64,000 nt of DNA, from the NCBI RefSeq assembly GCF_019879105.1, contig NZ_CP082249.1, positions 2,852,001 through 2,916,000 of the forward strand. The letters run 5' to 3'. Numbering within the stretch: the first letter of the stretch is position 1; the number at the start of each line of letters is the position of its first letter. The translations under genes and the position numbers were made by a program. Below, piece by piece: positions 1-49,707 of the stretch. The notes under the pieces are model-generated. The model was not told the origin of the DNA, ran no database searches, and saw only the letters and a program-made list of their open reading frames with translations. The DNA comes from Natrinema sp. SYSU A 869 (GTDB lineage: Archaea; Halobacteriota; Halobacteria; Halobacteriales; Natrialbaceae).

Positions 1-495
1 GAGGACGGCGAACAGGAGCAGGATCAGCCGCAGGTTCGGATCCGACGTCTCGAGGAGTACCGTGACGGGGGCGATCGCACCCAGACAGAATATCGCGATC
101 GCCGCGAGATATTTTGCGAGGCGGGCGACGGCCGTCACGGCGCTGATCTCGAGATCATTGTGTTCGCGGGCGTAGGGAAAGACGCCGAGGTACGTGACGA
201 GGACGGTGACGATCGTGCCAGCTGCCGTCGGCACCCAGGCGAGCGGCGCGGCGAGTCCGCCGGACAGCGCCGGATGAACGGACGAGAGCGCCGTCTCAGT
301 GCCGGCGACCAGCCCGGAGAACACGAGGGTGAGGAAGGTAGCGAGCCCCACGACGGCGAGGAGCCGGTGCGTCCCGCGCGACTGCCGGTCGTCCTCGCCG
401 TCGCCTCGGCGTCGAACCGCGTACCGTCCGTACAGCCGGCCTGTGGCGTAACCGACAACGAGCAGTCCAAACCAGCGGGCGAGTACCGAAATCAT
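1..495 (-). CDS. Multi-pass membrane protein, N-terminal part (cut by window edge)
   Basis: The reading frame starts at the ATG at 495 and stays open for 165 codons to the left edge, so the C-terminal part lies outside the window. The visible part is hydrophobic, with about four membrane segments (near residues 3-20, 44-64, 84-106 and 126-145) and a basic, Arg-rich cytoplasmic stretch after the first one. A TATA-like element about 26 bases upstream of the ATG fits a leaderless start. No catalytic motif is visible in this part. The layout recalls the membrane half of haloarchaeal M48-type peptidases, but that is a guess that the missing HEXXH region would have to confirm. Confidence 0.6.
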   Translation of the reverse strand, partial: MISVLARWFGLLVVGYATGRLYGRYAVRRRGDGEDDRQSRGTHRLLAVVGLATFLTLVFSGLVAGTETALSSVHPALSGGLAAPLAWVPTAAGTIVTVLVTYLGVFPYAREHNDLEISAVTAVARLAKYLAAIAIFCLGAIAPVTVLLETSDPNLRLILLLFAVL

Positions 496-6411: not shown

Positions 6412-7473
6412 ATGCGAATCGCGTTCGTCTCGTTCGAAACGGTTCACCACCGCGATACTGAGACGAACCAGCGGTTTCGGACCGTCTGTGACTTCCTCAC
6501 GGAGCGCGGGCACGACGTTCACTGGTACTGTGCCGGGTTCTGGGTCGGTGAAGAGTCCACGTTCGAGCACGAGGACGTTACATACCATGCGGTCGCGACC
6601 GGGACGGAAGCTCGAACCTCGTTTCTCCTGCGATTGCCGTTCGTCCTCGCAGCTGCGAGCCCGGACGTGATTCACGTCGGCGCACAGCCACCGAGTCAGG
6701 TCATCGCGGCCAAGTGGGGTGCGACGATGGCGCGTGTGCCGCTCGTCCTCGAGTGGTACGGCGACGGCGGCATCGACGACACGCGGTGGACGCGGTTCGC
6801 GACGGGCCGCCCGGACCGGATCATCACGCCGTCGGAACTCGTTGGGACGTGGGTCCGGGAACTCGGGGCCGACGGCGACATCGTCGAGACGATCACGAAC
6901 CCGGTCGACTGCGACCGGATCCGGAGCGTCGAGCCAGATGAGGACGTCGACGTGATCTACGCCCGACGACTCGACAAGGGTGCCAACCTCGAGAGCCTGT
7001 TGCTGGGACTGGCCGAACTCCGCGACCGCGATTGGCGGGCGACGGTCGTCGGCGACGGGCCCGAACGGGACGCCTACGAGGGGCTCGCGAGCGACCTCCG
7101 GATCGAAGATCGGGTGACCTTCGTCGGCGACCTCGACCTCGAGGAGCGGATCGCGGCCTACCGCGGGGCTCACGTCTTCGCACAGACGGCGGACCACTGC
7201 GTCTTCCCCACGGAGATGCTGTGGGCGCTGGCCGCGGGCTGTGTCGGCATCGTGGAGTACCACGCGAACTCGAGCGCCCACGAACTCGTCGAAGGGTGGG
7301 ACCGGGGGTTCCGAACGACCAGCGAGGACGAACTCGCGGCGGCCATCCTCGACGCGGGCGACCTCGAGCACCGCACGTACGACGAGGCCTTCGCCGACTA
7401 CGACCGGTCGGCAGTGGCCGACCGCTATCTCGAGCAGTACCGAACGCTCCGGGACGAGTACGGCATGCTGTAG
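6412..7473 (+). CDS. Glycosyltransferase family 4 (GT-B fold)
   Basis: A 353-residue putative glycosyltransferase that probably moves a sugar from a nucleotide donor to a surface glycan or lipid carrier. The start MRIAFVSFETV is a typical GT-B N-terminal strand. The C-terminal donor domain has the pattern of a strand reading VIYARRLDKGANLESLLLGL, the TVVGDGPERD strand, and the helix with FPTEMLWALAAGCVGIVEY, where GT4 enzymes normally place the Glu that contacts the donor sugar. The start is chosen from the TATA position. It stands alone with no surrounding glycan cluster, so the acceptor cannot be guessed. Confidence 0.85.
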   Translation: MRIAFVSFETVHHRDTETNQRFRTVCDFLTERGHDVHWYCAGFWVGEESTFEHEDVTYHAVATGTEARTSFLLRLPFVLAAASPDVIHVGAQPPSQVIAAKWGATMARVPLVLEWYGDGGIDDTRWTRFATGRPDRIITPSELVGTWVRELGADGDIVETITNPVDCDRIRSVEPDEDVDVIYARRLDKGANLESLLLGLAELRDRDWRATVVGDGPERDAYEGLASDLRIEDRVTFVGDLDLEERIAAYRGAHVFAQTADHCVFPTEMLWALAAGCVGIVEYHANSSAHELVEGWDRGFRTTSEDELAAAILDAGDLEHRTYDEAFADYDRSAVADRYLEQYRTLRDEYGML

Positions 7474-48584: not shown

Positions 48585-48863
48585 CTACTTCCGATACTGT
48601 TGGATCCCGAACCGCCCATATCCGCCGTATGCGATCTCGAGCGATCCGATCCACCAGTTCCACCGCTCTGGCGGGGCTCCATCGGGGGCGTCCGATAGCT
48701 CCGCGATGACGAGATCGTTCGTCAGCGTCACTCCCGCGTCCTCCTCATACCGGCCCGAGTCCGCAAGATCGACGGCTTGCCGAACGACGACGCGCGACTG
48801 GCCGGTCGTCCCGCCGAACTCCTCGCGCAGGCGATCCTCGAGTCGCTCAGGATCGATGAACAC
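48585..48863 (-). CDS. Conserved hypothetical haloarchaeal protein
   Basis: A 92-residue soluble protein with an acidic helical N terminus and a C-terminal strand-rich part, [29 protein letters not shown], unusually rich in Trp and Tyr. I recognise no domain. It lies upstream of the TM2-like gene on the same strand, with 51 bases between, and may be co-transcribed with it. Confidence 0.6.
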
Positions 48864-49128
48864 GGGTACTCGTAGGGGTCCGACGTACTTGACTGTTCGA
48901 GCGGAACGGCTGTGGACCCGAAACGATTCTGGCTCTACTGGCCGGGAGGACGGCTCTCGCGTTGCTCGAGCCGTCCGATTTTACGAAAAAGCAAGCTCTT
49001 CCGAGCGGCGGGACCGCTGGTCCCTCGAGCAGTCGGAGCTTAGCGCCGACGACCGCGAAGGAAGTGAACAGGAACGTCTTCCGTTGCTTTTCATCGAAGT
49101 GAAGCGGGATCGAAGAGCCCGCGAGGTT

Positions 49129-49151
49129 GTCGGGCGGCGCTGCCGCCCGAC
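49129..49151. repeat. Perfect hairpin, 10-bp stem
   Basis: Arms GTCGGGCGGC and GCCGCCCGAC around the loop GCT. Confidence 0.7.
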
Positions 49152-49156
49152 TGCAA

Positions 49157-49175
49157 GCGATTCCGGAGGAATCGC
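49157..49175. repeat. Perfect hairpin, 8-bp stem
   Basis: Arms GCGATTCC and GGAATCGC around the loop GGA, six bases after the previous hairpin. Confidence 0.7.
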
Positions 49176-49180
49176 CCAGT

Positions 49181-49213
49181 TCAAAAGAGCGCTCTATAGG
49201 AGCGTTCTTTTGA
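49181..49213. repeat. Hairpin with a 14-bp stem
   Basis: Arms TCAAAAGAGCGCTC and GAGCGTTCTTTTGA around TATAG; every position pairs if one G-U pair is allowed. This is the strongest structure of the cluster and could be a terminator or part of a structured RNA. Confidence 0.7.
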
Positions 49214-49225
49214 GGATTTTGCCGA

Positions 49226-49246
49226 GGGCGCGGCATAGCCACGCCC
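49226..49246. repeat. Hairpin, 9-bp stem with one mismatch
   Basis: Arms GGGCGCGGC and GCCACGCCC around ATA. Confidence 0.6.
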
Positions 49247-49308
49247 GCAGAGCAAAAAGTTCGGGACCGATCGATGATCTTTTGAGCGACGGCCGTCTTC
49301 CGTCGGGC

Positions 49309-49707
49309 ATGGCAAGTTTCACTGTCGTTGTCGGCGACCCGGAATCCGGGTTAGCCTACCAGCTTGAGGCGGAAGAACAGGACGCGAACCGCTTTATCGG
49401 CAAGTCCATCGGCGAGGAGGTCGACGGCGGCGCAGTCGGACTCGACGGCTACACGCTCGAGATCACCGGTGGCTCCGACGAGTCCGGCCGCCCGCTCACC
49501 GACGAGGTCGCGGGGCCGAACCTGAAGGAAGTCCTGATGAACGAAGAACAAACGGGCTACAAGCCATCCCGTGACGGCGAGCGCCGCCGAATCACTGTTC
49601 GCGGCCGTGAAGTGTCCGACGCTGTCGCACAGATCAACGCCTCGATCGTCGACCACGGCAGCACCGATGTCGACGAACTGCTCGGCGACGACGGCGACGA
49701 CGAGTAA
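49309..49707 (+). CDS. rps6e: Ribosomal protein S6e
   Basis: A 132-residue small-subunit ribosomal protein found in archaea and eukaryotes. The start [22 protein letters not shown] and the core [29 protein letters not shown] are characteristic, and the C terminus is short and acidic as in haloarchaea. The ATG at 49309 is confirmed by the family start, even though the frame is open far upstream. It is followed after 26 bases by a hypothetical gene that may share the transcript. Confidence 0.95.

What the first reader, a model, noticed from the sequence alone, without database searches (positions are those of the whole stretch)
48990..49250. Run of consecutive strong hairpins before rps6e
Within about 250 bases there are six inverted repeats; the four best are 10, 8, 14 and 9 base pairs long with loops of 3-5 bases, placed nearly back to back. 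Chance is a poor explanation for such density. It could be a structured RNA, a leader that senses S6e or ribosome state, or a cluster of small palindromic repeats.
Basis: seen in the sequence. Interest (0 to 1): 0.5.

Follow-up and report, generated by a model that had tools for sequence, protein, structure and literature searches.

The report
Haloarchaeal folded element at gene ends
The row of hairpins is a worn copy of a large, folded, non-coding DNA element that recurs throughout the genomes of many salt-loving archaea and normally sits, facing backwards, directly at the end of a gene; it matched no family in the RNA library searched and may act as a barrier or marker at gene ends.

Summary
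The hairpins are real and beyond chance (fold z -5.95). They are probably not an S6e leader but one rearranged copy (about 48940-49263) of a dispersed, modular, non-coding element. A covariance model of its core finds about 21 places in this Natrinema-group genome, matches in 115 of 125 family genomes and 172 of 292 class genomes; in a phylum sample all 20 positive genomes of 196 lie in the window's order. Rfam gave no match at curated thresholds. Base pairs covary strongly (29 of 35 pairs with double changes in 80 copies; 22 of 35 in 44 orthologous copies at one gene), and mismatches suggest that one strand is the one that folds. [quoted passage not shown] one copy abuts a tRNA 3' end. The rps6e and rps8e copies lie just upstream of those genes. 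Best reading: a REP/BIME-like but larger, structure-selected element, perhaps stopping transcription that enters a gene from behind (inferred). Main rival: a selfish repeat with that insertion preference. Transcription is untested.

The parts
48940..48978 (+). 5' domain I of the element: GGCCGGGA start and a 9-bp hairpin (48948-48956 / 48968-48976). The 3' half of the domain (CCCGGGG...GGGCAGGC) is missing here.
   Evidence: Inverted repeat I9; complete domain I found by a sequence pattern in 94 copies, 79 non-redundant, and seen in rps6e relatives.
48987..49057 (+). Inserted hairpin module (GCAAGCTCTTCCGAGCGG..GGACC-loop-GGTCCC..CGCCGACGACC), also found inside domain I of other own-genome copies
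   Evidence: Separate matches to query positions 3-78 (48982-49057); copies in L063, L064, L070, L079.
49058..49091 (+). Remnant of domain III (tandem-GA helix) ending in GCTTTT; its 5' half and domain II are lost here, probably by recombination at GCCGACGACC (inference)
   Evidence: Comparison by eye with the complete domain III of relatives.
49095..49098 (+). 5' strand of the outer stem (CGAA), pairing with TTCG at 49260-49263
   Evidence: Position by homology to columns 67-70 with 142-145 of A1; not in the minimum-energy fold.
49104..49122 (+). Optional hairpin A (GCGGG..CCCGC)
   Evidence: sequence; same module in own copies L032-L035.
49129..49151 (+). Optional hairpin B, 10 bp, loop 3
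   Evidence: I6; found with its loop inverted in other copies.
49157..49175 (+). Optional hairpin C, 8 bp, loop 3
   Evidence: I17; CCGGAGG here, CCTCCGG in other copies.
49181..49213 (+). Optional hairpin D, 14-nt arms (13 paired), loop 5
   Evidence: I3.
49217..49257 (+). Terminal hairpin TTTTGCCGAGGG..CCCGCAGAGCAAAA, with the 9-nt hairpin 49226-49246 inside
   Evidence: Covariance-model match 49169-49266, 41.6 bits, E 3.1e-8 for the window.
49260..49263 (+). 3' end of the element (TTCG). In most other copies a stop codon on the opposite strand follows within about 0-5 nt; here the rps6e upstream region follows.
   Evidence: for other copies; for this locus.
49264..49308 (+). Conserved rps6e upstream region (GATCGATGATCTTTTGAGC...), probably promoter; NOT part of the element
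   Evidence: Kept in relatives without the element, e.g. L144, L172, L174, L183.
49309..49707 (+). rps6e gene, right-hand neighbour (not part of the element)
   Evidence: Pfam Ribosomal_S6e, E 1.3e-43.

Best explanation
Shown: the region is a rearranged copy of a dispersed, modular, non-coding element with a covarying fold, found in Halobacteria and in no genome outside the window's order in the phylum sample. A complete copy has a 5' domain I (GGCCGGGA, hairpin, CCCGGGG), a domain II (CCGC-GA-GC-GA, hairpin, GA-GC-GA-GCGG), a domain III helix of alternating base pairs and tandem GA/GA mismatches followed directly by TTTT, optional hairpins, and a terminal hairpin TTTTGCC..GGCAAAA. One strand appears to carry the conserved fold, and that strand points into the 3' end of the gene it abuts. 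Inferred: it works at the RNA level as a one-way barrier. RNA polymerase arriving from behind a gene (read-through from a convergent neighbour, or stray divergent transcription) makes the folded strand, whose GC-rich helix followed by a U run halts it before it makes antisense RNA of the gene. At rps6e and rps8e the same one-way barrier would shield a promoter from upstream read-through. Inferred too: copies spread by an unknown route, and stems change by paired substitutions and hairpin inversion. I put the identity part at about 0.93 and the barrier function at about 0.35; the figure below is for the whole statement.
For: Dispersed family. Restriction to the window's order in the phylum sample. 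Covariation: and, at one orthologous locus, 85. Strand: as RNA the model strand folds better than its complement in 60 of 60 copies (mean -53.1 against -42.1 kcal/mol; 5 of the 60 are also in the model's training set); G-U cells outnumber A-C cells 68 to 23 and 55 to 19; purine-purine mismatches in stems (136) far outnumber pyrimidine-pyrimidine ones (22). The first T4 run follows a purine-rich strand like that of domain III in 58 of 60 copies by count and in the other two by eye. 3' end at a stop codon: 51 such stop codons in 76 copies, 54 of 76 copies. tRNA-Ala 3' end: L239. The association is with the right-hand gene, not the left one: right gene on the opposite strand in 66 of 77, against 157 of 355 gaps in the same loci (element gaps included), while left genes split 32 to 30. 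In the 150 rows listed, all 8 pairs of non-overlapping copies within 600 bp point outwards. Haloferax terminators use T stretches and in some cases hairpins (PMC7237163, passages).
Against: No transcript data. The U run is usually only four long, and the terminator scan (at least 5 T in 8) found none in a complete copy and, in the window region, only one on the other strand. A barrier would not need to lie within 5 nt of the stop codon, and 22 of 76 copies did not pass the stop-codon test. No conserved promoter precedes domain I, so the RNA would come only from read-through. In the window copy, which is rearranged, the complement folds almost as well (-159.2 against -162.3) and stands out more against its shuffles (z -7.05 against -5.08). 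The model was built on one strand, which favours G-U over A-C cells, and without one pair the counts fall to 31 and 22. With DNA parameters domain III of the two strands differs little. In the L10e set purine-purine and pyrimidine-pyrimidine mismatches are nearer equal (33 and 23). 120 of 292 class genomes gave no match.
Confidence: 0.45

Rival explanations
1. A selfish or formerly mobile non-autonomous element (REP-, BOX- or PATE-like) with a preference for landing at gene 3' ends. The fold is needed for copying, and the host gains nothing.
For: Sharp 5' boundary with unrelated flanks and no promoter in 79 non-redundant copies; copies at unrelated genes; patchy presence at rps6e; module insertions inside copies; bacterial REPs also lie mainly downstream of coding regions (PMC3733652, passages).
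Against: 45 of 70 L10e loci taken from one family carry it at the same place, with compensatory changes. No link to IS200-type transposases: 8 of 29 genus genomes have no match to the family yet average 22.9 copies, and 1 of the 30 transposase loci fetched has an element within its 1.5-kb flanks. No target duplication was established.
Confidence: 0.3
2. A DNA-level element at gene ends, for example a gyrase or nucleoid-protein site like bacterial BIMEs, using cruciform or single-stranded DNA.
For: Placement at gene ends and between convergent genes; hairpins found in both orientations; one copy between gyrB and gyrA. Gyrase binding by BIMEs is recalled.
Against: Strand asymmetry, and a large energy difference with RNA parameters but a small one with DNA parameters (domain III -17.6 against -11.1, and -6.5 against -5.9).
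Confidence: 0.12
3. A 3'-UTR element of the abutting gene acting in the sense mRNA (termination, stability or translation).
For: It begins within about 0-5 nt of the stop codon and has a T run close behind the stop in most copies shown.
Against: The sense strand is the less stable one in 60 of 60 copies, and the conserved GA/GA pairs become UC/UC in it. A tRNA 3' end and the upstream regions of rps6e and rps8e are also used.
Confidence: 0.08
4. An S6e-sensing leader or other rps6e-specific regulator.
For: It lies 45 nt upstream of the rps6e start codon; rps8e also has a copy upstream.
Against: It is probably outside the transcript, absent in many relatives, and found at many unrelated genes.
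Confidence: 0.03

Closest known systems
Bacterial REP / BIME repeats
   Same: Many copies, extragenic, hairpin-forming, mainly downstream of coding regions, often close together in opposite orientation (PMC3733652, passages); BIMEs are composites of REPs (PMC2817692, start of abstract in the listing).
   Different: Archaeal; about 110-500 nt rather than 20-40; conserved tandem-GA scaffold; 3' end at the stop codon in antisense orientation; no GTAG or CGTC consensus tag seen; no link to Y1 transposases found.
PATEs and SMRs of Haloquadratum (IS605-related or small mobile repeats)
   Same: Haloarchaeal, non-coding, multi-copy, no transposase of their own; PATEs have near-terminal palindromes (PMC3119063, passages).
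   Different: PATEs resemble IS605 ends (not compared here) and SMRs have terminal inverted repeats (not seen here); the gene-end rule is not mentioned in the passages read.
Haloferax transcription terminators (T stretch, hairpins)
   Same: T runs, sometimes with a hairpin upstream, in intergenic DNA (PMC7237163, passages).
   Different: This is a far larger, dispersed family; the T run is usually four; it points into the end of the neighbouring gene.
Halobacteria S15 ribosomal leader (Eckert and Weinberg)
   Same: Haloarchaeal structured RNA motif near a ribosomal protein gene (PMC7247131, passages).
   Different: That motif concerns S15; 'S6e' does not occur in the paper's main text, and the present element is probably not in a leader.
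BOX elements of pneumococcus and double-hairpin elements of fungal mitochondria (recalled, not looked up)
   Same: Conserved ends with a variable number of hairpins (BOX); compensatory stem changes (double-hairpin elements).
   Different: Other organisms; no stop-codon rule recalled.

Membership tests
REP/BIME | Multi-copy extragenic palindromes, mostly downstream of coding regions | tested here: met
REP/BIME | Unit of 20-40 bp with a GTAG or CGTC tag at one end | tested here: not met
   Core of 116 model positions; ends GGCCGGGA and TTCG. GTAG occurs at a few junctions only (by eye).
REP/BIME | Association with a RAYT / Y1 transposase | tested here: not met
   8 of 29 genus genomes lack a Y1 match yet average 22.9 copies; 1 of 30 fetched Y1 loci has an element
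MITE / SMR | Terminal inverted repeats | tested here: not met
   By eye: whole-element ends GGCCGGGA and TTCG are not inverted repeats of each other
MITE / SMR | Target-site duplication (MITE only) | tested here: inconclusive
   Element-free rps6e sites too divergent to read
PATE (IS605-derived) | Near-terminal palindromes related to IS605 ends | not tested
   No IS605 end sequences were compared; only proximity to Y1 genes
Structured RNA (covarying fold) | Compensatory base-pair changes beyond shuffled and slid controls | tested here: met
   (shuffles only in 85)
Structured RNA (covarying fold) | It is transcribed | not testable with these tools
   No RNA data available
Known Rfam family | Match to a covariance model at its curated threshold | tested here: not met
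   (best: a microRNA model, 22.6 bits against a cut-off of 90)
Ribosomal protein leader (S6e) | Lies in the 5' UTR of the regulated mRNA | tested here: inconclusive
   Sequence argument against it: the conserved upstream region survives without the element; start site not mapped
Intrinsic terminator | GC-rich hairpin followed directly by a T run | tested here: inconclusive
   T4 behind domain III in 58 of 60 by count and the other two by eye, but the scan requiring 5 T found none in L006

The most novel reading that the evidence does not exclude
A class-wide haloarchaeal RNA system that guards gene ends: folded, tandem-GA RNA elements installed backwards at the stop codons of housekeeping genes and at tRNA 3' ends to stop antisense transcription, spreading by a dedicated, possibly RNA-templated, mechanism that recognises the end of a gene.
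Probability: 0.2. Interest if true: 0.9.

Novelty: new variant of a known kind. Interest (0 to 1): 0.72.

Why it matters
It exposes a large structured element family, without a match in Rfam 15 and present in 57 of 77 sampled genera of the class, with a strict positional rule (antisense, at the stop codon) that I know of for no other dispersed repeat. It would make three open points testable in genetically tractable haloarchaea: how dense archaeal genomes limit antisense transcription, whether folded RNA contributes to archaeal termination, and how a non-coding element can be placed at gene ends. It also gives a covariance model that can be used to annotate haloarchaeal genomes.

Tried and rejected
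Rfam at gathering and lenient thresholds: nothing relevant. Phage records: no match. Plasmid records: 3 and 6 records, all haloarchaeal. S6e leader: not supported. Own promoter in front of domain I: no AT peak near -25 in 79 non-redundant copies. Kink-turn reading of the terminal hairpin: considered from the sequence and dropped, because one required position is A or C (38 and 30 of 80). IS200/RAYT mobilisation: not supported. Terminator of the left-hand gene: not supported, left orientation is neutral. Literature: ten searches listed no title or abstract that describes this element; most were poorly targeted and the library lacks most subscription papers, so this is weak evidence of novelty.

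Rows dropped and biases. One search left out 10 of 86 loci (opposite-strand duplicates, and long forms in which the model end is not the element end); L220 was already out because it was too short. One search used 79 of the 80 model hits (one cut off by a contig end), of which 76 had enough right flank; its 22 misses are three rps6e copies, one rps8e copy, two with a gene end that one search does place there (L269, L295), eight in which the model end falls inside a long form (by eye), one 14 nt away (L290) and seven unexplained or further away. The sets overlap, since some named records are the same genomes as unnamed handles, and both contain some training copies. One search used 45 of 55 rows (44 distinct). 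The 80 loci were picked by a pattern that fixes part of domain III, so conservation there is partly by selection. One search's own test for TTTT was too loose (it could count the second T run); one search repeats it properly. Copies scored per genome are capped, and match lists are cut, so copy numbers are lower bounds.

Full report
What is there. The sequence and repeat search confirm the hairpins, and 48980-49260 folds far better than shuffled sequence (z -5.95, 0 of 200). The unit is longer than reported: it begins with a hairpin at 48940-48978 and ends near 49263. It lies between a short open frame on the minus strand (48585-48863, no Pfam match) and rps6e (49309-49707, Ribosomal_S6e).

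It is a dispersed family. A DNA search of the genus found matches in 29 of 29 genomes (some of these matches are the rps6e flank itself). Further searches in the window's own genome showed copies at unrelated places. Many of those copies, and many of the copies at rps6e in relatives, are more complete. Their common scaffold is: domain I (GGCCGGGA, hairpin, CCCGGGG, then GGGCAGGC); domain II (CCGC GA GC GA, hairpin, GA GC GA GCGG); domain III (C-GA-C-GA-CC-GA-UGU-GGA, hairpin, GGA-ACG-GA-GG-GA-G-GA-G, then UGCUUUU); optional hairpins A to D; and a terminal hairpin (TTTTGCCGAGGG..CCCGCAGAGCAAAA) closed by an outer stem. Some copies have another 5' module or none of domain I. The window copy has half of domain I, an inserted module, only a remnant of domain III, then hairpins A-D and the terminal hairpin, so it is a rearranged copy.

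Model and spread. From 13 copies (A1) I built a covariance model of domain III plus terminal hairpin (R1, 116 positions, 35 pairs). It finds 26 rows in the own genome at E up to 1, which I read as 21 places after removing four opposite-strand rows and joining two rows of one element. The window copy itself scores 41.6 bits (E 3.1e-8). In the family 115 of 125 genomes and 26 of 29 genera have a match; in the class 172 of 292 genomes and 57 of 77 genera. In a phylum sample 20 of 196 genomes match, all in the window's order. Matching contig lengths identify several genus members as Natrinema, so the window is from the Natrinema group (inference). Rfam has no match at its curated thresholds.

Selection on the fold. 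In A1, 93.3% of cells pair and 13 pairs show changes on both sides, against 6.9 in shuffles. In 80 copies, 92.8% pair, 29 of 35 pairs have double changes and 398 cells change on both sides against 113 in shuffles; slid controls give covariation scores of 0.025-0.058 against 0.353. Because paralogues could mislead, I examined one orthologous site. The gene for ribosomal protein L10e (Pfam Ribosomal_L16) has the element at its stop codon in 45 of the 70 loci that I took from 123 genomes with the gene. Among the 44 distinct sequences 94.2% of cells pair and 22 of 35 pairs have double changes, against 9.8 on average and 14 at most in 300 shuffles. These alignments were fitted to the model, so the counts lean towards it; the controls do not remove that fully.

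Which strand. Conserved mismatches are GA/GA on the model strand. As RNA, the model strand is more stable than its complement in 60 of 60 model-found copies (mean -53.1 against -42.1 kcal/mol; 5 of the 60 are training copies), and in 79 of 80 pattern-picked ones; with DNA parameters domain III differs little (-6.5 against -5.9, better in 70 of 80). G-U cells outnumber A-C cells 68 to 23, but one pair supplies 37 of the G-U cells, and without it the counts are 31 and 22. At L10e the counts are 55 and 19. Against this, the window copy folds almost equally well on both strands, and purine and pyrimidine mismatches at L10e are closer (33 and 23).

Position rule. In gene sense the element follows the stop codon directly, for example TAACGAACTTTTGC. 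The model runs 4 nt beyond the outer stem. The end of a stop codon of an open frame of at least 100 codons on the opposite strand lies 0-6 nt inside the model end for 51 stop codons in 76 copies, and within -1 to +5 of it, that is about 0-5 nt from the outer stem, in 54 of 76; the same test on the sense strand shows at most 4 counts at any offset. Genes so marked include L10e, thermosome, a glutamine amidotransferase-phosphoribosyltransferase read as PurF, aIF1A, acyl-CoA dehydrogenase, a GTPase, an AAA ATPase of the proteasomal type, transcription factor S, a TbsP-like regulator and the DNA polymerase D large subunit. In other families of the order a copy abuts the 3' end of a tRNA-Ala gene (L239), and the flank of L238 reads like another tRNA end that the finder did not call. 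With my own simple gene calls the right-hand gene is on the opposite strand in 66 of 77 copies, against 157 of 355 gaps in the same loci, while the left-hand gene is + in 32 and - in 30. So the element belongs to the gene whose end it touches. Two copies sometimes lie back to back: among the 150 rows listed, all 8 non-overlapping pairs within 600 bp point outwards, none inwards or in tandem; searches list further outward pairs. Exceptions to the stop-codon rule are rps6e (this window) and rps8e, where the element precedes the gene on the same strand, and some unexplained copies (listed under tried and rejected).

History at rps6e. In 70 loci (own included) the element is present, degenerate or absent. 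The sequence next to rps6e (GATCGATG(A/T)TCTTTTGAGC... in the nearer relatives) is kept either way, which argues that the promoter is downstream of the element. In three relatives (L139, L148, L189) domain III is replaced by a stretch with T6 runs behind domain II.

Element or gene? In 79 non-redundant copies nothing upstream of GGCCGGGA is conserved apart from a T at -1 (53 of 79) and a weak C at -4 (40 of 79), and there is no AT-rich box. So it does not look like an RNA gene with its own standard promoter; it is a discrete unit with sharp ends. IS200-type transposases do not explain it.

Interpretation. The positional rule, the probable strand and the T run behind domain III fit a one-way transcription barrier that keeps antisense RNA out of genes, or read-through out of the rps6e and rps8e promoters. 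This is inference. It is weakened by the short T run, by the lack of transcript data and by the fact that a barrier need not touch the stop codon. The main rival is a selfish repeat with a gene-end landing rule. Bacterial REPs are the nearest known kind (PMC3733652, passages), but size, scaffold, end tags and transposase link differ. PATEs and SMRs (PMC3119063, passages) and Haloferax terminators (PMC7237163, passages) are nearer in host but not in form.

Noticed in passing
L139, L148, L189 (rps6e upstream regions of relatives): Domain III is replaced by a different module with T6 and A6 runs (CCTTTTTTGG..GGAAAAAAGG), while the 5' domains and the insertion site stay the same.
   Followed up: partly
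window 49129-49175 and L032-L035: Hairpins B and C occur with their loops in either orientation in different copies, as if whole hairpins flip (cruciform resolution or template switching).
   Followed up: no
L170 (G005) and L198 (G069), rps6e upstream region: A short sequence (CTGATACGG..) lies inside or beside the element or site, looking like a haloarchaeal MITE.
   Followed up: no
L210 (Natrinema thermotolerans CP031304.1, about 157470-157590): A copy sits between gyrB and gyrA, its match ending 2-3 nt from the gyrB stop codon.
   Followed up: partly
L276, DNA polymerase D large subunit gene: The protein carries an intein with a LAGLIDADG domain (Pfam).
   Followed up: no
window 299-407: Weak model match (13.7 bits, E 0.14) on the + strand; probably chance.
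   Followed up: no
L290 (Halostagnicola sp. A56), about 7120-7136: The element end is followed by what looks like the end of a second, older copy before the stop codon, as if copies can nest at the same site.
   Followed up: no
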